A stretch of DNA of 64,000 bases from Antedon bifida. Its lineage: Eukaryota; Echinodermata; Crinoidea; Comatulida; Antedonidae. The first letter of the stretch is position 1, and each line of letters begins with the position of its first letter. The DNA is taken from NCBI GenBank assembly GCA_963402885.1, contig OY727103.1, positions 3,503,501-3,567,500 on the forward strand. Reading direction: 5' to 3'. A model generated the notes under the pieces. That model worked only from the letters and a program-made list of their open reading frames with translations. It ran no database searches and was not told where the DNA came from. This document shows, in pieces, positions 1 to 47,100 of the stretch. The translations under genes were made by a program, and so were the position numbers.

Positions 1-269
1 TCTCCAATTTCATGCTCAGGGGGCCTAGCGTCCTGTACCTTCGCCGCCGATGTCTCATCCTGTCCCTCGCCAGGGTGTTGGTCAAAAGGTACTTCGTCCT
101 TGTTCTTTACTAAATTCTCTCGATTAAGTGAAGAACACCCACAGTCTTGTTCTTCTTTTGAATTAGTGGCATCGACATCTGTAAGCACTTCGGAAGAACA
201 AGCATTTACGAATAAACAGAGTGAAAATATAGAAAACAACAAATTCACTTTTATCGTGGAGGCTGCCAT
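1..269 (-). CDS. SUMF1: Putative SUMF1 (formylglycine-generating enzyme), N-terminal coding part, continues off the left edge
   Basis: Read on the minus strand, an ATG at 269-267 opens a frame that stays open for 89 codons to the window edge. The product starts MAASTIKV, then has a hydrophobic stretch (about residues 8-24) typical of a signal peptide, then an acidic stretch and Asp-Cys-Gly-Cys at residues 42-45. SUMF1 oxidises a cysteine in newly made sulfatases to formylglycine in the ER; its vertebrate N-terminus has a signal peptide followed by a Cys-Gly-Cys motif used for ER retention and disulfide contacts. The catalytic domain would lie outside the window, so the call rests on this motif plus location: human SUMF1 is the divergent neighbour of ITPR1. 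The first exon may end before position 1; an AAG/GTACAG donor-like site lies inside the frame. It could be another secreted protein. Confidence 0.6.
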   Translation of the reverse strand, partial: MAASTIKVNLLFSIFSLCLFVNACSSEVLTDVDATNSKEEQDCGCSSLNRENLVKNKDEVPFDQHPGEGQDETSAAKVQDARPPEHEIG

Positions 270-272
270 CTT
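261..272 (-). promoter_or_regulatory. YY1-like motif overlapping the SUMF1-like start codon
   Basis: Minus-strand AAGATGGCAGCC contains the start codon and differs by one base from the YY1 core AAGATGGCGGC. YY1 sites overlapping the translation start are a known feature of some housekeeping promoters. The Ala-Ala codons alone could produce the match by chance. Confidence 0.35.
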
Positions 273-1028
273 TGTTTGCAATTTATTTACAGCAAGAGGG
301 CGCTGTGTAATGTTTTGAGAACTATATTTTTATTTACATAATTTAGAAAAGCAACAATAAATAAATAACCTGTTATTTTACAAAAGGGAAACTTTCAGAA
401 TAAATGTGTAACTCTAATAAATCTATCCGTTTGTTGAATATCCTTCTTACGTATTCAAAAGACACTTGAAGTTATTAAAAACATAGGAGGATTATTCCGC
501 CGTGCGCATGTGGGCTGTTTGTTGTTACTTTTTTGATTGATTGGAGAGCAGCAACAGGCGATTGTGTGAGCGGTGCATCGTGTCGACGGATTGACTGTTT
601 TAGAGATTAAAAAGTGATTTCCTTTATCCCTAAAGGAACTTATAAGCACATTATATAAATGCTTTTGTGTATCTGTATTCGTTTTTGTAACGCAAGGTAA
701 TAAGATAAGAAAAGATTGACGTAGGTTAGCCTGGTCTTCTTAGGCCTAACCTAGATTTTGTTCACGACTTGGCTGCTTGTTGAGCTCGGTGGCAGTGCGT
801 GCACCCCGGAAGTGTTGACTGTTGTCTGCAGCCTACAATTATAGCCTAAAAATGATGTGACTTTAATTTTCGTTTAATGAACAATAGTTTATGCAGCGAT
901 ATAACTATGTGATGAAAAATCAGCTATTGGATTGGAATTAATAAATCAGGCACAAAAATTATTGATTCTCAAAAAAGGAAAGCAAGTTGTTTAATAGAAA
1001 CCTGGATTTTTAGGACCCAGCAGAGAGG
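270..1028. promoter_or_regulatory. Compact divergent promoter and 5' UTRs between SUMF1-like gene and ITPR
   Basis: Only about 760 bases separate the two divergent start codons, so the region must hold both promoters and the 5' UTRs. Visible signals are an ETS/GABP-type site CCGGAAGTG at 806-814 and an imperfect inverted repeat at 722-755 (taggttagcct / aggcctaaccta). CpG content is locally higher around 500-600 and 775-815. No clear TATA box at a sensible distance was seen. A pyrimidine-rich stretch ending in acccag just before the ITPR start could be a 3' splice site of a non-coding first exon, as vertebrate ITPR1 has. Promoter function is inferred from gene arrangement. Confidence 0.6.
806..814 (+). 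promoter_or_regulatory. ETS/GABP consensus site
   Basis: CCGGAAGTG is the consensus bound by GABPA and related ETS factors, which are enriched in bidirectional promoters. It lies 215 bases upstream of the ITPR start codon. Binding is not shown, only the sequence match. Confidence 0.4.
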
Positions 1029-2118
1029 ATGGGGGAATTGTCGACCACAACCAGCAGCAGTTTCTTGCATTTTGGAGATATTGTTTCATTATATGCAGAA
1101 GGAAGTGTTAATGGATTTATCAGTACACTTGGGTCAGTATTTTGATTTTTTTTACAAATCCTACTACACAAATACAGTAGAAAAATAAGTAGTATTTTAA
1201 AGTATGATGCTAAATAATAATTATTATTATACAGTACATAGGCTTAGTTAATTAACTATAATAAACCCTACCAAATGGAACAACGTTTGGAAATAAAATG
1301 TGTATTTTCACTACAAATTTATCTGAATGTAATGCACTGTTACAAAATGGAATTTACAGTATATATCTGTATACATTTTATATTTTTTTATATATATTTT
1401 TTTTATAGACCTATATTGAATGTAAATTTGCCACAATTTGTTTTTTTTTCTGCAATGCCATTAAAAGAAATTTTAACCAGAATTGAATTAGACATGTTAT
1501 TTACTGTCGCTTTTGATTGCATCACGGATGCGTGTTTATTTTGAATTAATCCACAGAAGAAGATATTACACTTACAGATTTCGATATTATTCTTGGCCAT
1601 TTCTCAAAGTAGACCTGTTGATGTTTATTAAATAACATTTTTTTTTTAGTTTTCTGATATTTCATTTATTGAATTATGAATATGTAAAATATATTTTATG
1701 TTACGTTCGGTAGAGCTAAAAAAATATTCAAATCAACATTGTCGTCATCGTTTTCATGCTTATTTTATGTAGTTTGGTTGATGACAGATGTGTTGTTCAG
1801 CCAGATGCAGGGGACATCAGAAACCCACCTAAAAAATTTAGAGGTGAGACCAGCAAATTTTATTATTTTTACAGTATTGTATTTAGTGAGTGCAGAATGT
1901 GTTTAGGCTTTAGGCTATTCTCACTCCTGGTTATTTTCATTGGTGACTGAATAAATATTATTAATTATAACACATGCAATAATAATATCTTGTTTATTTC
2001 AGATTGTCTTTTCAAAATTTGGCCCATGAATCGGTATGCTGCTCAGAAACAGTTCAGAAAAGCAGCCAAGCCTCACATTAATTCAGCATCAGATGTTGCC
2101 CTGCTTACCAAACTACAG
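1029..2118 (+). CDS. ITPR: ITPR exons 1-3: suppressor domain, first part (residues 1-97)
   Basis: Exons 1029-1132, 1773-1843 and 2003-2118. Exon 1 encodes [20 protein letters not shown] and then the LYAEGS-NGFIST block. Exon 2 gives [10 protein letters not shown] and the NPPKKFR motif, and exon 3 [18 protein letters not shown]. These are the first strands of the N-terminal beta-trefoil that lowers IP3 affinity and couples ligand binding to the pore. Phases are 2, 1 and 0 at the exon ends. The N-terminus is four residues longer than vertebrate ITPR1. Intron 1 (1133-1772) is AT-rich with poly-T runs and no recognisable content. Confidence 0.96.
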
Positions 2119-5100
2119 GTAAATAGAACAAATAATGAATGTTTATGAGTTGAATAACAAAGATATTCTCTCCAGTCAATGAATATAAAATAGTCATTAT
2201 TTTATAAACACGCCTACTCTGCCAGGTCCAATGGAGATAGTGTTCTTTAACACAAAACTTGCCAATTTCACCTCAATTATTATGATAGACTGGCTAAATG
2301 TGGCACTCGGATTAATTTAGTTTTGCAGACTAGGCCTGTTATGTAGTGCATTGAGATAGTAACATTGAATTATTATTACTTTCTTTAACCAATTAATGGG
2401 ATGAACAAATGGCACATGAAATGGTATATTTACATGTACAGTAATCCGAATAACGAACCAAAAAGACACACAATTCATTGGGATAGTAACATTGAATTAT
2501 TATTACTTTCTTTAACCAATTAATGGGATGAACAAATGGCACATGAAATGGTATATTTACACGTACAGTAATCCGAATAACGAACCAAAAAGACACACAA
2601 TTCTGTGAATCTGCCTGTTAGTGTTAAGATTTTAATAATAGTACATATACCGATTTATTCATAATGCCCAAGTCTAATTAATTTCTTAATTACTCAAAAT
2701 TCATAATAAATCTTTGCTATTTAATAGTACAGTATCTGTATCAATCAATATTACATTGTCCTTTAATACTGTATAGTGCGTGACTATACAAGTATCATGA
2801 TCTCAAAGTCTGTAGTGAATTTTCCTGTATACTTTATTCAGTCATATTATTTATAATAATAAAATAAAATTATTTCATTTCTAATCTGTCACTTGAAATA
2901 CCATGAATTTCCTATATTATAATCCACTAAACTATTATAATAACAATGTTGTACAGTACTAAGTATACTGAAAATGTATTAAGAGTTATTCAGAGTTAGA
3001 CACTAGTAGTAGTGTACTAACCCTTTTATAATAATATAATAATTTATTTGGAAGCTACACTTTTGAAACAGTGGCACACTTCTTGAATGAAGGTGCGTCC
3101 AGAGTAAAAGTAAAAGAGAAAAAAAAATGATTTAACAATACTGGATAGGGGTTGATAGTTGTTTTTGTTATACTTTTCTCTATGTAATTCATTAATTGTT
3201 ATATTTTATATTGTTTTTGTGAAGGATGCACCTTTGTACTAAGTGTGCCACCGATCTAAAGGTGTACAGTAATTCCGAATAAATAAATAAATAAACTTCC
3301 TTCCTTCAGAGTAAAACACATACTGTTTATACTGTGCACACATTTTAAATCAATGTTTATTAATAAATACTGTATTGCAAAAAAATATCTGTTAAAACAC
3401 CAGAAATAAAATATCGACAGTTACTAGGATCTTCTACTGTTATTTTAAAAGTACTGTATGACAAGTACATTATAATGCCATGCTCAAGTATGTATATATC
3501 CCATAATGCAATAGTAGATTCCATACAGTAATACAGTAGATAGATAGATAGAAGTAAGACTGTATAATCTGCTACTAGAAATACTAGGGTACTATATGTT
3601 CAAATCCATGGAGTTACACTTCCGTATCGCAAGCAAAGTCATATTATAATATTAATTATTACTGTATCATAACAGCAAAGTTTTCAGACTCGCTTCACTT
3701 AAAATTAAGTGTCACAGATTTTAAGTTAGGTGATGCAATGTACAGTACACTAAGAAAATGATCGTCTGAAAGTAGAGTTTCCCCCAGTCTACAAAAAATC
3801 TAATTTGTACGTGGAATAGTTTTTGGAATGGTCCCAAACATTTCCAGTTTACAGCTGTAAGGTCGGTAAACACTAACTCAAATTTGAGCACGCGACTGCA
3901 GCCATGTACATATGGCCTTGTTCTAGAATGTGCATCAATTTAGAACGTAATTAGTACTGTATGTTGGCTGGTAAAGCTAAGCTCCAATTACCGAGATCTT
4001 TTAAAAATATCAAACTACCTCTATCTAGACTGTAGATTTAGGTCAGACGCAACGTAAGAAAATGCCCTTCCGAAAGTAGTGTCTTCCCCATGTCTCCAAA
4101 AAATCAAAATTGCTTATGTTTTGTACATGGAATAGTTATTACATGGTCCCTGGATATTTCCATTTCTACTACATTTAGGACGTATTAGTAGTACTGTTGG
4201 CTGGTAATGCTAAGCTCCAATTACCGAGACCTTCTCAAAATATACCTCCAGCTATGGTGCAATTAGCTACCAATTTAATATGAAAATCAATAGAACTTTA
4301 AGTATGATTACGTCTTAACAAGAAGCTCTTTGTGGTGATGCAGTATTTTTCATTTGTGATAATGCAATTATAATGCACTTATTCCAACATTAATCAACTT
4401 GTACGCTTGAAGTGCTAAATGATCGGAAAGGAAAAGACATTTAATAGACAAGCCTTCCAACTAAATGTTACAGTCAACTCTGTCTTAGTTGACCTTGCGT
4501 AAGTCGAATAATTACGAAGGCTGAATTTTTATATGAAAGTTGCCTAGCTATTTTGTGTCAGGGACACTTTGTTGGTCCCGAAGATATCCCCTCAATAGTG
4601 GTTAGAGAGGCCTACAGTGCTATGTTTTTTTAAAAATCCAGGCATGATTAATAATTGTTTATTTAATTTAAAGCCCTGTTCCTACGTTTTTTATGAAACA
4701 AACTACAGTTAATCAATATTGATAGAAATACTTTTATTGTCAAATTTTGTTTCCTGTCATGATCAACAATTTCTCATTTGTATTTATAACAGCAACAATA
4801 CATTGTATTGTTTTCATGAATTGTAGATAATTATTATGACAATAAATCAATATCGATAGACAATGTATGTCTGTGTTGAATACAGATTATAGTATTATGT
4901 CTATGGGCAGCCATTAGGGTCAAAATAACCAAAAGTATTGTTAAAACACCTTTGCATGAATTAATGATCCAAGAAATTTTTGTAAATATTTTTATAAATC
5001 AATATCGATGGACAATACTTGTCTGTGTTGAATACGGATATTATAGTATTATGTCTATGGGCAGCCACTAGGGTCAAAATAGGCAAAAGTAATCCTAAAC

Positions 5101-20100: not shown

Positions 20101-23100
20101 GATTTTTCTTTTTCTGTTTATAAGTTTATTAATATGGATGATATTTCCGAAATAAAAAGAAATTGAATTGAATAACATAAATCTTATTTCTTATAATTTT
20201 ATTTTAGAAATTAAATAATAACAAATACAGTAAACATAAATTATGATAACATTTTCAGTAAGATTCCTTAATTTGTAGAACTTTAAAACATACTAGCAAT
20301 TTACGCGTCTTAACATTTAATAAGTGTAATAAATCAATTTGTTTAGAAGCCTCAGGAAATCGTCTGTCATTAAAATGCTGTGTTTACCATAATTAAAACA
20401 GTTATTTATCAAATGATTCTGACACTGAGTGTTATTTTGGTGACAGCAAAACATATTAAGTTGTTTTTGCCAATAATACATAATGCTACAGTGGTACAAT
20501 GGTAGAATGCCTAATATCAAGTAGAAGAGTCCGAGTTTGAATCTCAGTTGAGGAATTTTGTTAAATATTGCTGATTTTATCATCTTTATAAATTTTCTCA
20601 ATCATTTTTTTTTTTTTCTGTAGGTGAACGCAGTAAATTGTAACACATGTTGGAAAGTTTCACTATTTCTTGAAGATCGAGAAAATATGGATGATGTTTT
20701 AAAAGGGGTAAATAAAAATTTATGAACTACAATCATGTTGTCACTTTTTAGCTAAGTTAATTCCATGTCAATTATAGATCTGATAGGATTTGAACTGGTG
20801 ACCACGCAGTTACACAAAAGGTACCTTATCCATTAAACCACAGAGAATATTGATTCCATAGTATACAGTTCTTGCGATGGCATATCTACGGTAATAAAAT
20901 CAGACTGATTTTATTTTGTAATGATTTTTACTTCTAATTTGTCATAGGGAGATGTTGTCAGGTTGTTTCATGCAGAACAAGAAAAGTTTTTAACAGGAGA
21001 CGACTATAGGAAAGACAATTATGTATTTCTAAGAACAACGGCAAGAGCATCAGCTGCTGCTGCAACGAGTTCCAAGGCATTGTGGGAAGTTGAGGTAAAA
21101 ACTTTAATATTCAAGTTCACATTTATTTAGCCAAGAAAAAAAAATCAGCATGGATCTTACAAAAGAATACAAAAAAAACGTAATTCAAAATTTTAAAAAT
21201 ACATATAATTTATACATACATAAGGGTATGATTAGTATCTGATATGAGAATGTTGCTATGTCTGTGTAAGACAATTGATATCAATGTAATTTAAGCCTCG
21301 TTTCTTGATTACAAACTTGAGCAAAACTCCCAAATTTTTCAAGAAAAAATTTGCCAGAAAAACTGCAGAAAACAAGCTTGCAGAAGACTAGCACTTAGTA
21401 AATTTAAGCAATCTCCAAGTTTCCAAACAAAACTTTGGTAAAGCTTCATGATTCTCCCATTTGAGAGCATGGTTTGTGGACTGTACCATTTATGGAGAAG
21501 GCTGTTCAATGAATTTTCTAGTTTTCCAGTATATCTCGCTCTTCGTAGAGAATAAGGCATTTGTCGTTTTATCTGGGTAGTCTAGGCACGAAATACACTA
21601 AGATTTACAATACCTGACCATGCTACTTATGTCTACCTATTACAGGTTGTTCAACATGATCCATGCAGAGCTGGTGCTGGCCACTGGAATAGTTTGTTTA
21701 GGTTCAAGCATCTGGCCAGCGATATGTACTTGGCTGCTGAGGTAAATACATTCACTATGACATCAAATATACATAGATAATGCCAAATATGGTATAGTTC
21801 CTTCATTACATTGTTTTGTCTAGAATATATAAAGGTATGAATGTAGAGTAGATAAAAACATTTTATAATTTAAACAAAATGGTGTAATAGTTTGGTGTAT
21901 TATATCACATTTGAGCAATTGTCATGTTTTTTGTAATGCAACTCATTTCAGCTTCAGCTGGCAACTTGCAATATGTGTTTTATACCTGAATAAATAAATA
22001 AATAAATAAATAGGAAAAAACAAGTATTAGTAATACTTGTTGTTTCCTATTTATTTATTTATTTATTCAGGTATAAATACTATTACAAACAAATAAATAT
22101 TACTATTACTATATGGATGTGGGAACTAAAGTAGACAAAATAATACATTTTTTTTATATCAGATTTTAGCAATTTTTTTTGTAAGGCAACTCATTGCAGC
22201 TTTGGTTGCCAACTAGCAATATGTGTTTTATACCTGAATAAATAAATAGGAAAAAACAATTATTAGTATATGATATGGTATCTAAATTAGATTATATAAT
22301 AATCTTGACTATTGCACTTGTAGGATGATAACGATGCAGCGGCGGATCCAACAAGGCAGAAACTAAGAGGAACCAGTCGTGTTGGCTATCTGAAACCTAT
22401 TGAGCATGGGCATGACATAGCTTCCATATTTGAATTGGACCCTACCACTTTACAAAGAGGGGATTCATTAGTTCCAAGGTAAATATGCAAATGTTCTGTA
22501 ATGTGAAGAATCTGTATGTTGTTGAGAATGTTATCACTGACATTTCAGTTAATTGCTGATCATTAATGTTTTACGAGAGTTGCCGATGACTTTATTTGGT
22601 AAACAATGTACTGGTGACCTTTTACCTTTATATGCCGCACTTTCTATTCACTAATCTGATTGGTTAATAGTCATGGTATTTTGTTAACCAATCCCTACTT
22701 GTGAATAGCTTTTTTTTGGATTATGTGTTTCTGAATTCAATCAAAGACTATGTGTGATTTAAAAAAAAAAACTATAGTGTATTTTTGCAGTTTGTTTATG
22801 TAACTGCGATGTCTATGGTGGGAGAAACCGCCCATTATATCTCACAATTTGTCCTTTATTCATAGGAATTCATATGTTCGGTTACGTCATCTGTGCTCAA
22901 ATACATGGGTACATAGTACAGCTATTCCATTTGATAAAGGGGAAGAAAGACCAGTTATGCTAAAGGTAAGAAAAAAATAATGCTGTTGACTCGCCCCCAA
23001 ACATAACCTTTCTTGGAGTCCTAAATGTTCCACCACATTCTTCCCATTAAATTACATTTGGAATATGAGAAATTCTGGAAAACCAAACATAATTTAGCAT

Positions 23101-26100
23101 GTTTTTGTTTTCTAATTCTAAGCCTAAGCTTGTCGAGTATTTGGAGAGTTTGCTGAATGTTTTCTACTTGCACAATATTAAATTTATCACCTTTCCTGAA
23201 CACAACTTATGTTTTCTACTGCACAATATTTCAGCTTGTTTAGTTTATCTCTAAAAATGTTAAAAATCTGATCAGGAAGAGTGTTGCATTCAACAAAACT
23301 TTTAAATAAATTTGAATAGTCTTTTATGCGATCACCTGTATTCAAATTACGTTTTAAAGCTCTGTCTACACTATCTTTGACAAAAAAAGTGTGATGTGCC
23401 CACATATGGCAGTGATATGCTTAAATATGTCCATATATGGGCACATCACATTGTTTGTCGCATAAATTTTGATAGTGTAGATAGTTTTATAGAATAGAAA
23501 GCAGCTCTCTCAATACTATAAAAAAAATACAATCCATTACAAACCGTATACTGTATATATTCATCTTTTTAGGTCGGTACTGCCGAGGTGCGTGAAGACC
23601 GCGAGGCATTTGCAATTATTCCAGTCTCCCCTACGGAGGTGCGTGATTTAGATTTCGCTAATGATGCTAATAAGGTGCTGTCATCCATCGCTTCCAAACT
23701 TGAGAAAGGGTCAATCACTCCCAATGAACGCAGGTAAAATATTTCTATGTTTGTCTAAATTGTCTAATAATTGTTATGCTTTTTATATATTTTATTAAAT
23801 ATTGAAGGATACACTAAAATCTCATGTGGTGTGGTGAGTTTAACCAATCCTCTCACTTTTTGTTTTTGCTGTAAGGTTTGTGACCCAACTTCTCCATGAC
23901 TTGGTGTTCTTCGTTGCGTCAGAGACCAATCAAAATGGAGATCCATTCGCAGTTGTAGTCTCTGCACCTGAGAGAGACAGACAGAAGTTAATGAGGGAAC
24001 AGGATATATTGAAACAGGTATAAAGAAATATATTTTTGTATATCCTCTGGTATAATCGCACCTCCTTAGAACATGAAATTGGGCTAACTTTAGGAAACCC
24101 TGGTTCAGGAAAAAATTAGTGGTAACCATTTTTTGTAAAAACTCATATGAACTGGCTAGAGAAATCAGACATAAAGTAGGGGTGGGATTAGACCAGAAGT
24201 GGGATTATACCAAGGATATATGGTATATTTATTAGGTAGTTAGTATTATAATATTATTGGAACAGTAGTGTTCTAGTACCACATTTTTTTTATGCAATAT
24301 GTATTTTGTTTTCAATAACAGATTTTCAAGATTCTGAAAGCGCCTTTTGCTGATAGTGGAGAAGGGCCAATGTTACGCATGGAAGATCTTGCAGATGCTC
24401 GTCACGCTCACTATCGTACAATATGCCGACTCTGTTACAGAATCCTCAGACTTTCCCAACAGGCATATCGAAAAAACCAGGTTAGGCATCCTTACCATAA
24501 AAAATTTACTAATGCTCTGCCAACAGATTAACACCTAAAAGGCATTCGTTTGTCATCCCTTTCTCAGGGAACTCATAATACACTATCATTGATGACAAAA
24601 AGCTGGGGTGTGAGTATACTTACTCAGCTGCTTGTAGTTGGTGTTATTATTTTTTATTCGGCAAACTAGAATTATAGTACTTGCTTTGTTTGCTTGTAAG
24701 CATGATAGCGCCCACAAATTTCAAGTTATCATTCTGAAAATGTTGGTGTGCATAGGTGTATACTTAAAAAACATGTCACAAAAGCTTATTATATTAAAAT
24801 CTGACTTACCTGTATCTTCCATATGAGATATTAAATAGCACTGTATTCTTTTAACATTAATATCAAGTAGTGAGCCCTCTCTCTCCAAATATAGTTTTCC
24901 CTGATGTATTTTGCCAAGTACTGCACTCAGTTTCTGAGTGCTTTCATTTATTTGTATTGTTTGCATTATACAGGAATACATAGCCAAACAGTTTGGCTTC
25001 ATGCAGAAGCAGATTGGTTACGACGTCCTTGCAGAAGACACGATAACAGCGTTGCTTCACAACAATCGCAAACTTTTAGAGCAACACATCAGGGAAGACG
25101 AAATCGAAACCTTTGTCAGCTTAGTGCGGAAAAAGAAAGAGTGCAGGTAAGACAGTTCTTATTATTCTGTTAGGTCAAAGGGTAAAGTTCATCAAACCTC
25201 TTGGATACATATGATCAAGATACAGTAGAACCCATCATTGGTCCCAAATGTGTTACCTTAATAGTTCTGCCGTACTTCATCCATATTATTTCATATAATA
25301 ATATTATTTACTTATTTTAGTACAGTAACATTGAGGTCAGAGTTTAAAGGTCATCAAAACTCACGATTGCATATTGTCATTCAGATTGTTGAATTAGTAA
25401 AACTATGATATATAAATGTATTTTTTAATATAATATTTTGTTTTGTTTTTAGATTTTTAGAGTATTTGTCTGATTTGTGCGTATCCAATAACCAAGCCAT
25501 TCCAGTAACTCAAGAATTAATTTGCAAATCAGTTTTGAATCCAAAGAATGCTGATATCCTTGTACAAACTAAGTAAGTGAACACTGAAGATGAAACCCTA
25601 GTCCTAAAAATGGGAATAAAGCGCGGGCACCATTTACCGTACTTAAAGAGCCTACAATATCCACATGGGTTCGAGGCTGACTCGCTCCTAGTTCTTGTGG
25701 TGGAACAAGTCTCGGATAAAGACTATAAACCAAAGTTGGGGACCCAATTTGGAAACAAGCCTTTTGGATTAAAGTGTTATCCCCTGCTTTCCATGTTTTT
25801 TTTCAGGTTGATTCCAGTTCACACGCAAGAGGAAATCGAACTGGACGGTGTCGATGATAACGGCGATCCGATCATCGCGATTCAGGAAGACGAAGAGGAA
25901 GAAGTGTTCTTGATTTGGGATGAAAACTGTCTGAAGGGAATAGCAGAGTTGGCGCAAGGTGCTAAGGATAAAATTAGAGAAGACACCGAGATTCTGCGAT
26001 ATTATAGGTAGCTCACTAGTATATACTATAATTATATACTATAAGTATAGATAGCTAGGCACATGCCTGATACCACTAACTCCAATATCTTTGCAAAATT

Positions 26101-44100: not shown

Positions 44101-47100
44101 AGCCAAAACCTGCAGACATTCTATATCTTATTTTCTTTCGCAAGAAACACATGGTGTATCGCAAGCATAACTTTACTAGTGTTTATTTATCATGCAGACT
44201 TTTAAACAATGTTAATAGTTGTTTAGAAACAATGTCATGGTGGTCCTAAACATGGTTTGTGGAGGGATACAATATGAATATAATAATATATTGTTGGTTG
44301 GTTAAGGTTTATTGATGGTGTGTGTGTTTTTTGTCTGTGGTAAACTAGTTGAAACTGGGATTTAGCGACAAATTTGGAGACTAATCAATCTATATTTCGT
44401 ATTGAATTATTATTGGGTTTAGAAATGGTTGATTAAAAAATACTAATACATTTATCAAACATTCTTGATATACACAAACTGGTACATAAATATTTGTGTA
44501 AGTTTTTTTGTTAAATTAAATAATGTGTTTAGAATTTGATATGTTGAAAAAGTACATGTTATATAACTACCAATTGTATTACAAATGTATTACATTTGAT
44601 ATAATGTTTTTCATGTTATTGAAAAAAGCTCAGTATCATAGATACAGTAAAACCCCCTAAGAGGAACCCCCTGTAGAGGGGATACTTTGCTTGGTGTCAA
44701 AGGTGTCCTATTAATAGGAGTTCTACTGTATTTTTTCTATTCATCACTGCTTTTAGCTAAAACATTTATACACATTTGTACACACACTACACTTCATTTT
44801 TATTCTTTACACAATTATCACAACATTGAAAATTATTTTAATTTTATCATTAGAAAATATAAAATTATAAAAATAATTATCGGTTTCTGAATAGGGGGAA
44901 AAACTACGTCAGAGTTTGTTGTTCCGTTATTATGGAAAAGCACATCCCCGTTACCAAAAGGAAGGCTCCTCACGGAAGGACAGTAGTGGCACGCAGATGA
45001 AGCAAACTCAATTGAACACGAATCATGGTACGATGGTGTTGAGCCGTGCGGAGATGTCAATGTCCCAAGTCCAAAACCAATTAGACGAGCAAGGCGCGTC
45101 AGATTTGGTCATAGACTTGGTTATCAATAACTCTAGTACGAAAGTGTTTCAGGAAAGTGTTGAACTTGGTATTGCGCTTCTAGAAGGAGGGAATATTAAA
45201 ATACAGGTTAGTATGGTACACAGTATCATAGACAAATACCATGATACAGTTTAACATGTGTGTCACATGTGAATCCTATATCATGAAATTGTTTGATAGG
45301 CTAAATACAGAGTGACATGTGACAGTGTACCTATGATACGGGCATCACATGTTGTAGATGTTATTGAATATTAGTACCATCATGTCATACAGTAGAACTC
45401 CTAGGGATTAGTTTCCTATGAAACAAAGAAGAGGAAATATATGTGTTCTACTGTTGATATTATACTCTATATGTATACAGTATGAAACTCTCTCTCAATA
45501 CTGGACACCTGTGTCTGGTTTTGTGGAAAGTTTGGTATTTGAAATGTGTTTTTAATGGTAGAAATGAATTTGGGACTTTTTGGTCTTTAAGAAAAGTCTG
45601 GGATTGGGAAAGTTTCTGGTTTTTAGAGAGTCAGGTATTGGGAGAGTTGTCTGTATACCTTTTTTATGACATATATTATATTGTATACTCTTGTCCATGT
45701 TTTGTTTTTTAGCAATCAATATTCAACCGCTTAACACGTGATAATGATTCGGACAAGTTCTACAAAGTGTTTTACGAGAAAATGCGTGAAGCGCAAACAG
45801 AGATTAAAGCAACGGGAACAGTTAATACGGGAGAAGGTATTGCAACGAAGGGCGCAGATTCTGATGGGAATACAAAGGATATTTCGTCAGGACGGTTAAA
45901 GAAATGTAAGAATTTTAAGTAACCAAAATTATATATTCTTTAAAGAACATTGTCATGAGCATATTAGCAAATGTAATTTAATATTGTGTATTTTTATTTG
46001 TTTTAGCTCGCATTCCAAATGGTGGTATCAGCGAAGAATTAAAAGAGCAGTTGGCTGATGCAGCTCTCCATACCAGCAAAGCCTTTGACGCAGTCCGTAA
46101 GGGTCGAGATGATGAAGGTGGGGGTGGAGGGGGTACAGCTATCGACATGGTTGAAAAAGGCAAAGATGAAGACCGCGACATGAGCCCAGAGATCAAGATA
46201 ATGCAGCCTATACTGCGCTTCCTACAACTGTTGTGTGAAAACCATAATAGAGATTTACAAGTAAGACTGGAAGAGCATTTTCAAGAACTGCAGTTACTTT
46301 ACTATTCGATCTTTAATCTGATTATGCAAATTTTAGCAAGTTTTTTGTGTAATTGTAAACTATAACATTGGAAAAAAATAATCTCATTTTGTTGCTGTAA
46401 AAATGTAATTACTGCAGTAACTGCAGTAAAATAATTTGATCTGAAGCTGTAAATGTAGTATTTTGGTTTGCAGTATAACTATGAAAACAACAGTACTACA
46501 GTTGAACCCCTATCCTACACCGTATGGACCAAAGAAAATGTCCATTGAATATGTGCGTCCCAAAGGTGGGATTCTACTTTACTATAATATGCCGTAGTTT
46601 CCATAACTACTCAAAATGTACATAAACTATAAGGATGGTTTTTGGTGGTTCTAAAGCCGATTTTCCACTAGGCGAAGTTGTTCGCGCGAATCCAACGTTT
46701 CGAAGAGAAAAAATCGTGAATAGCTATGACGTTCATGTTCCTCACGTGGTTGTTGAGCATTTCGTTTCGCATGAGTGCTCATGAAAGCGTCATAGCTCAT
46801 TTCCTGAGCTCTGATTGGTTGCGCAATATTTCACTTTGCAAAAAGTAGAAACAATTCGAACTAGTAAATTTCGCTGAAGCGAAAAAATCAAAGGAACTAG
46901 AATTCGTCGAAGAAGGGAGTATGACAGACAGAAACTCGAATGCGCATAGCATGGCGCTTTCGATTCGTGCGAACAAATTCGCATAGTGGAAAATCGGCTT
47001 AAGAACTGATGTTTGTTATGTCTGTTTTTCATGTCAGAAAATACTGTAGTTCAGTGTAATTGTTTAGTTTAGTTTTTCTAGAAGAAAAACCATTGCAATG

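What the first reader, a model, noticed from the sequence alone, without database searches (positions are those of the whole stretch)
1..1031. Head-to-head SUMF1-ITPR gene pair, as in human 3p26
The minus-strand start at 269 and the ITPR start at 1029 are only 760 bases apart. The left protein has a signal peptide and a Cys-Gly-Cys motif like SUMF1, and human SUMF1 and ITPR1 are adjacent and divergent. Microsynteny kept from an invertebrate to human, with the promoter region shrunk to under 1 kb, suggests a shared bidirectional promoter.
Basis: partly seen in the sequence, partly recalled or inferred. Interest (0 to 1): 0.8.

Follow-up and report, generated by a model that had tools for sequence, protein, structure and literature searches.

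The report
Head-to-head SUMF1 and ITPR gene pair
In this echinoderm-like genome the sulfatase-activating enzyme gene SUMF1 and the calcium-channel gene ITPR lie back to back with only 759 bases between their start codons, the same adjacent, divergent order as in humans, so the pair has probably stayed together since a very old common ancestor, perhaps because the two share a promoter region.

Summary
The minus-strand ORF starting at window 269 runs off the window and, in the same exon and frame, enters an FGE-sulfatase domain. An 8-exon GT-AG model (C16:3499275-3503769, minus) encodes 406 aa, identical to solved FGE at 186 of 284 core residues, with both active-site cysteines and the N-terminal Cys-Gly-Cys: SUMF1. 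A separate gene on contig C7 looks like SUMF2. The plus-strand gene from 1029 is an inositol trisphosphate receptor; the one other receptor-domain hit in the genome reads like a ryanodine receptor. Mitochondrial code suggests an echinoderm; 11 large contigs suggest a crinoid (recalled). Published human SCA15 deletions fit the same divergent order. Not shown: start sites, co-expression, a shared promoter, or the arrangement in intermediate animals. The gap holds NRF1-like, ETS and YY1-like motifs (8 of 2000 shuffles as rich; partly post hoc). 'Shrunk' is unsupported, since the direction of change is unknown. No human 3p26 neighbour was seen, but only ten nearby ORFs were scanned. A sound, modestly interesting case of likely deep microsynteny with a plausible, untested bidirectional promoter.

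The parts
1..269 (-). First part of SUMF1 exon 1: ATG (267-269), signal-peptide-like segment, Cys-Gly-Cys motif. Exon 1 continues left to C16:3503251; the coding part of the gene ends at C16:3499275, about 4.2 kb left of the window
270..1028 (.). 759-bp region between the two start codons; candidate shared (bidirectional) promoter plus both 5' UTRs
265..272 (-). YY1/TISU-like AAGATGGC that overlaps the SUMF1 start codon
   Evidence: motif recalled
501..510 (.). NRF1-like core CGTGCGCATG (pattern matched on both strands, +503 and -508)
   Evidence: motif recalled
805..813 (+). ETS/GABPA-like site CCCGGAAGT
   Evidence: motif recalled
1029..1132 (+). ITPR coding exon 1 ([35 protein letters not shown]), donor GT at 1133
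   Evidence: boundary read by eye
1773..1843 (+). ITPR coding exon 2
   Evidence: boundary read by eye
2003..2118 (+). ITPR coding exon 3; Ins145_P3_rec domain
   Evidence: boundary read by eye
20948..21127 (+). ITPR ORF with MIR domain (exon ends not set)
24319..24528 (+). ITPR ORF with RIH domain (RYDR_ITPR; exon ends not set)
45982..46362 (+). ITPR ORF with RIH_assoc domain (exon ends not set)
60450..60656 (+). ITPR ORF of the C-terminal part (exon ends not set)
60774..61232 (+). Last ITPR-like coding ORFs seen (C-terminal tail, two ORFs)
   Evidence: likeness to the ITPR tail recalled; Pfam gave only two sub-threshold, non-ITPR hits for the first of the two

Best explanation
This is an intact SUMF1 (formylglycine-generating enzyme) gene and an ITPR gene in divergent, immediately adjacent order, most likely inherited as a unit from the common ancestor of echinoderms and vertebrates. 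The 759 bp between the start codons would work as one compact open promoter region of the ordinary housekeeping type (NRF1, ETS, YY1-like sites, raised CpG around 400-700), firing divergently and giving SUMF1 leftward and ITPR rightward. Shown: both genes, their orientation, the gap. Supported by literature passages: the matching human order. Inferred: shared ancestry of the linkage, and the shared promoter.
For: SUMF1: PF03781 matches by exon left of the window on the minus strand; 8-exon model with GT-AG at all 7 introns and an in-frame stop; solved FGE (human by recall) 455.8 bits, E 1.1e-135, against SUMF2 at 243.7 bits; 186 of 284 aligned residues identical; both catalytic cysteines kept in GGSFMCHESYCYRYRC; CGC at residues 43-45 and a hydrophobic N-terminus, like the human exon-1 extension whose C50/C52 are functional (PMC7279497, passages). 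A second FGE gene on C7 lacks cysteines in the active-site segment (read by eye). ITPR: exons 1-3 to IP3R1 9e-44; MIR, RIH, RIH_assoc; C-terminal ORF to IP3R 1.2e-23; in the genome scan 3 of 4 Ins145 hits lie inside the window and the fourth reads like RyR. Human order: SCA15 deletions removed ITPR1 exons 1-10 plus half of SUMF1 in one family, and all of ITPR1 plus SUMF1 exon 1 in another (PMC12668824, passages). Promoter-like motifs: 3 of 8 motif types tested occur in window 260-1034, reached by 8 of 2000 dinucleotide shuffles.
Against: No start-site, RNA or chromatin data. CpG o/e of the whole gap (0.87) is not exceptional: 20% of 1031 local tiles reach it. 55 of 5152 overlapping tiles in the 264-kb region hold 3 or more of the 8 motif types (5 of them overlap this gap), so the motif content is unusual but not unique; two of the motifs had been noticed by eye before the scan; 5 of the 8 types are absent from the gap. 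In Amphimedon such motifs mark promoters in general. Candidate splice sites in the gap mean the ITPR 5' UTR could be spliced, so the start-site distance is unknown. No other animal genome could be searched; chance re-adjacency is not formally excluded. No wider human neighbourhood was seen, and direct searches for it did not complete.
Confidence: 0.6

Rival explanations
1. The linkage is ancestral, but what holds it is not a shared promoter. ITPR cis-regulatory elements lie in or beyond SUMF1 (a bystander or genomic regulatory block arrangement), so rearrangements between them are selected against; the short gap here is only local compaction.
For: In human an active ITPR1 enhancer confirmed by reciprocal 4C spans SUMF1 intron 8 and SETMAR exon 1/intron 1 (PMC11508295, passages). 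Human SUMF1 is 106 kb long (PMC7279497, passage).
Against: The other confirmed human ITPR1 enhancer lies on the opposite side, in BHLHE40-AS1. In this genome the SUMF1 coding gene spans only 4.5 kb with introns of 157-998 bp, so there is little room for distal ITPR elements inside it; elements further left were not tested.
Confidence: 0.2
2. The linkage is ancestral but neutral: the pair survived because divergent neighbours separated by a few hundred bases are rarely broken without damaging a promoter, with no co-regulation of the two genes.
For: Head-to-head pairs under 1 kb are common: more than 10% of human protein-coding genes (PMC3552671, abstract in listing) and 32.2% of fly genes are given as transcribed from bidirectional promoters (PMC4773876, passage).
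Against: In human the gap is much larger (recalled), which short-gap inertia alone would not protect; not testable here.
Confidence: 0.15
3. Independent adjacency: the two genes came together separately in the echinoderm and vertebrate lineages.
For: No intermediate genome was examined; the neighbours identified here differ from the recalled human 3p26 genes.
Against: For two single genes among roughly 20,000 (gene number assumed), the same adjacency and orientation twice is very unlikely by chance.
Confidence: 0.05
4. The left ORF is not SUMF1 (SUMF2, a pseudogene or an unrelated secreted protein).
For: The 89-aa stub alone matches nothing in Pfam or the PDB.
Against: Full-length intact model, both catalytic cysteines, SUMF1 over SUMF2 by 212 bits; a separate SUMF2-like gene exists.
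Confidence: 0.01

Closest known systems
Human SUMF1-ITPR1 locus, 3p26
   Same: Adjacent and divergent: published deletions, taken together, remove ITPR1 from exon 1 on and SUMF1 from exon 1 on (PMC12668824, passages).
   Different: Human SUMF1 is 106 kb with 9 exons (PMC7279497, passage), here 4.5 kb with 8 coding exons; the human gap is recalled as about 26 kb against 759 bp between start codons here.
Human SUMF1 / FGE enzyme
   Same: FGE-sulfatase domain, active-site cysteine pair, hydrophobic signal-like start, N-terminal CGC in exon 1.
   Different: Longer N-terminal extension (the match to FGE begins at residue 114; 406 aa here against 374 in human).
Bidirectional promoters of compact animal genomes (Drosophila, Amphimedon)
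   Same: Head-to-head genes under 1 kb apart; NRF1 and YY1/Kozak-like motifs are reported in Amphimedon promoters (PMC4773876, passages).
   Different: There start sites are mapped; here only start codons are known. That paper reports Sp1 and G-box motifs as more frequent in bidirectional promoters, and neither pattern occurs in this gap; overall it saw no major difference in motif abundance between uni- and bidirectional core promoters, so the motifs do not prove bidirectionality.

Membership tests
SUMF1 (formylglycine-generating enzyme) | FGE-sulfatase domain PF03781 over its full length | tested here: met
   3.2e-80, profile 3-254 of 255
SUMF1 (formylglycine-generating enzyme) | Two active-site cysteines (human C336/C341; numbers, and their absence from SUMF2, recalled) | tested here: met
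   Residues 361 and 366, aligned with cysteines of solved FGE
SUMF1 (formylglycine-generating enzyme) | Closer to SUMF1 than to SUMF2 | tested here: met
   455.8 against 243.7 bits; no tree built
SUMF1 (formylglycine-generating enzyme) | N-terminal extension with CGC in exon 1 | tested here: met
   CGC at 43-45 in exon 1; function from PMC7279497 (passage)
SUMF1 (formylglycine-generating enzyme) | Cleavable ER signal peptide | tested here: inconclusive
   Hydrophobic stretch 8-21; no dedicated predictor run
ITPR (IP3 receptor) | IP3R N-terminal, MIR, RIH, RIH_assoc and C-terminal regions in order on one strand | tested here: met
   of 9 window stretches sent to Pfam 4 hit such domains, 5 did not; ion-transport region not tested; no complete exon model built
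ITPR (IP3 receptor) | IP3R rather than RyR | tested here: met
   18 of 18 PDB sequences matched by exons 1-3 are IP3 receptors; the C-terminal ORF scores 85.7 bits to IP3R against 40.3 to RyR
Bidirectional gene pair | Opposite strands, 5' ends facing | tested here: met
Bidirectional gene pair | Transcription start sites less than 1 kb apart | tested here: inconclusive
   Start codons have 759 bp between them; transcription start sites not known
Bidirectional gene pair | One shared regulatory region drives both genes | not testable with these tools
   No expression or chromatin data; motif content only
Conserved microsynteny with human 3p26 | Same two genes adjacent and divergent in human | tested here: met
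   From literature passages on deletions; the human genome was not searched
Conserved microsynteny with human 3p26 | Other 3p26 neighbours nearby | tested here: inconclusive
   10 ORFs of the 264-kb region were scanned (7 left, 3 right of the pair): HSP20, profilin and PP2C over the cut-off, one I-set below it, 6 without a hit. Searches for PF01743, PF01532, PF02190 and PF00003 did not complete
Conserved microsynteny with human 3p26 | Present in intermediate taxa | not testable with these tools
   No other animal genome was available to search

The most novel reading that the evidence does not exclude
SUMF1 and ITPR form an ancient animal divergent pair kept because their products work in the same compartment and are co-dosed: an ER-luminal, calcium-binding (recalled) enzyme retained by ERp44 through its CGC motif (PMC7279497, passage), and the ER calcium channel that ERp44 also binds (recalled for IP3R1). 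One bidirectional promoter would set both; human SCA15 deletions would then disturb a conserved regulatory unit rather than two unrelated neighbours.
Probability: 0.1. Interest if true: 0.7.

Novelty: new member of a known kind. Interest (0 to 1): 0.4.

Why it matters
If the linkage is ancestral, a human disease region (SCA15 deletions can span both genes) would rest on a gene pair dating to the echinoderm-vertebrate ancestor, and the compact invertebrate form would let one test directly whether the two genes share a promoter and why they stayed together. It also shows the CGC-bearing N-terminal extension of FGE, which a review calls a feature of FGE from higher eukaryotes only, in an echinoderm-like invertebrate.

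Tried and rejected
Rejected: the left ORF as SUMF2, a pseudogene or an unrelated secreted protein. Weak: a CpG island as proof of a promoter; over the whole 759 bp it is ordinary (20% of 1031 tiles are as high), with only the 400-700 part raised. Undecided: a non-coding first ITPR exon; candidate donors and acceptors in the gap score like real SUMF1 sites. Led nowhere: literature searches for the pair as microsynteny or head-to-head (0 papers, 4 papers, 121 papers of which 12 listed; none relevant by title), for the assembly by its size (5 papers, none an echinoderm by title) and for Antedon bifida. NCBIfam gave 8 families for the SUMF1 model, each well below its curated cut-off; paper not held. 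One search stopped on a script error after its first figures and was redone. The C11 FGE-like exon was first read on the wrong strand, then on the right one (GFHDTFGNAWEWT, with a stop at its second codon), and not followed.

Recalled, from no call: motif patterns, splice-site weights, gene names of the mitochondrial ORFs, the RyR likeness of the C14 ORF, karyotypes, the human gap of about 26 kb, the human neighbour list, and that the best PDB chains are human FGE. The SUMF1 exon ends were chosen by eye with the known FGE protein in mind and then checked by frame and splice letters. The echinoderm reading rests on the mitochondrial code (AAA at conserved Asn sites, AGR at Ser sites), which flatworms share; crinoid rests on 11 large contigs (314.67 of 315.56 Mb; lengths, sum).

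Full report
What was claimed.

Observation. The ATG codons are at 269 (minus) and 1029 (plus), with 759 bases between them. The 89-aa stub inside the window matches nothing in Pfam or the PDB, so the test lay to the left.

Left gene. The window is G000:C16:3503501-3567500. A six-frame PF03781 scan of the own genome gives 7 exon matches: 3 on C16, minus strand, within 4 kb of the window, the nearest at 3503251-3503430; 3 on C7; 1 on C11. Exon 1 runs without a stop from the window ATG into the domain; its part of the profile is positions 3-61. An 8-exon model was read from the sequence: all seven introns are GT-AG, the frame is kept, and it ends with a stop at C16:3499275. The 406-aa product matches solved FGE (human by recall) over 284 residues (E 1.1e-135, 455.8 bits) and SUMF2 less well (243.7 bits). 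Identity is 186 of 284. Both active-site cysteines are kept. CGC lies at residues 43-45. A review states that C50/C52 of the human exon-1 extension are needed for sulfatase activation and ERp44 binding (PMC7279497, passages only). The C7 gene has FGE-type exons whose active-site segment holds no cysteine (read by eye; no search against SUMF2 was made). So the left gene is SUMF1.

Right gene. Exons 1-3 (1029-1132, 1773-1843, 2003-2118, boundaries read by eye) match IP3R1 at 9e-44; 18 of 18 PDB sequences matched are IP3 receptors. Of 9 window stretches sent to Pfam, 4 hit IP3R/RyR-type domains above cut-off (Ins145_P3_rec, MIR, RIH, RIH_assoc), 4 had no hit and 1 had only sub-threshold, unrelated hits. 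The C-terminal ORF at 60450-60656 hits IP3R best. The genome scan for PF08709 gives 4 hits: 3 in this gene (one with a stop inside the matched stretch, as happens when introns are ignored) and 1 on C14 whose ORF reads like a ryanodine receptor (likeness recalled). So ITPR appears single-copy within the limits of that scan. A complete exon model was not built.

Which animal. The first 10,000 of 15,844 bp of contig C27 read as mitochondrial (gene names recalled); AAA falls at conserved Asn sites and AGR at Ser sites, as in the echinoderm and flatworm code. An ORF that looks like nad6 lies on the other strand from the rest, which argues against a flatworm (recalled). Eleven contigs hold 314.67 of 315.56 Mb; 11 chromosomes point to a crinoid (recalled).

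Comparison with human. A case report states that deletions removed ITPR1 exons 1-10 with half of SUMF1 in one family, and all of ITPR1 with SUMF1 exon 1 in another (PMC12668824, passages). Taken together, contiguous deletions of that form imply that the two 5' ends face each other. Human distances were not examined here.

The gap. Motifs found: an NRF1-like core at 501-510, an ETS site at 805-813, and a YY1/TISU-like element over the SUMF1 start codon. Three or more of eight motif types occur in 8 of 2000 shuffles of window 260-1034 and in 55 of 5152 overlapping regional tiles, 5 of which overlap this gap. Two of the motifs were noticed before the scan, so this is supportive only. The other five types tested (NFY, SP1, CRE, E-box CACGTG, RONIN) are absent. 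CpG o/e is 0.87 against a regional mean of 0.64 (20% of 1031 tiles are as high), peaking at 1.34 in 401-600. In the sponge Amphimedon NRF1 and YY1/Kozak-like motifs mark promoters in general; Sp1 and G-box motifs were more frequent in bidirectional ones, but overall no major difference in motifs was seen (PMC4773876, passages). So the gap looks like a promoter; whether it is one promoter or two is open.

Why the pair stayed together. Preferred: a shared compact promoter region (about 0.6 for the whole statement). Rival: ITPR enhancers in or beyond SUMF1. In human one confirmed enhancer of ITPR1 spans SUMF1 intron 8 and SETMAR exon 1/intron 1; the other confirmed one lies on the far side, in BHLHE40-AS1 (PMC11508295, passages). 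Here SUMF1 is only 4.5 kb, which weakens that for this genome. Neutral inertia and independent adjacency remain possible. 'Shrunk' assumes a direction of change that nothing here shows.

Wider neighbourhood. Of 10 ORFs scanned in the surrounding 264 kb, 3 hit above cut-off (HSP20, profilin, PP2C), 1 just below (I-set), 6 not at all; none of the four is a recalled 3p26 neighbour. The 10 are a selection: one search listed 67 high-scoring ORFs outside the pair. Direct family searches for 3p26 genes did not complete.

Print status. Five searches combined SUMF1 with synteny-type, head-to-head or echinoderm terms: 0 papers; 0; 4; 121, 12 listed; 238, 10 listed; the last three did not require all terms. 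One search combined SUMF1, ITPR1 and bidirectional promoter (61 papers with two or more terms, 20 listed). No listed title addresses the pair in invertebrates; only one open-licence library was searched, so this does not show that it is unpublished.

Verdict. Observation confirmed; interpretation partly supported; a new member of a known kind (a probably ancient divergent gene pair); interest 0.4.

Noticed in passing
L012 (G000:C7:4284105-4287300): A SUMF2-like gene on the plus strand; the segment that corresponds to the SUMF1 active site (LRGGSYIDTKDGSFNHMTRV) holds no cysteine (by eye).
   Followed up: partly
L006 (G000:C11:13450245-13450382, minus): A third FGE-type exon (GFHDTFGNAWEWTVDNFNGYPGF) with a different look from SUMF1/2; gene not traced.
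   Followed up: no
window 2349-2602: A tandem duplication in ITPR intron 3: two copies of 127 bp, 98% identical.
   Followed up: partly
G000:C16:3478867-3479007 and 3483017-3483433: Two neighbouring profilin-like ORFs left of SUMF1; the second hits PF00235 at 9e-25, the first was judged by eye.
   Followed up: partly
G000:C16:3624728-3626765 and 3635936-3637973: Two sets of five ORFs 11.2 kb apart with the same translations as printed: a recent duplication or repeat.
   Followed up: no
L051 (G000:C14:18036826-18036954, minus): Ryanodine-receptor-like exon ([37 protein letters not shown]), the only Ins145 hit outside this ITPR gene in the genome scan.
   Followed up: partly
L030 (first 10,000 of 15,844 bp of G000:C27): Mitochondrial contig that reads well under the echinoderm code; the recognisable genes are on the minus strand except one that looks like nad6.
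   Followed up: partly
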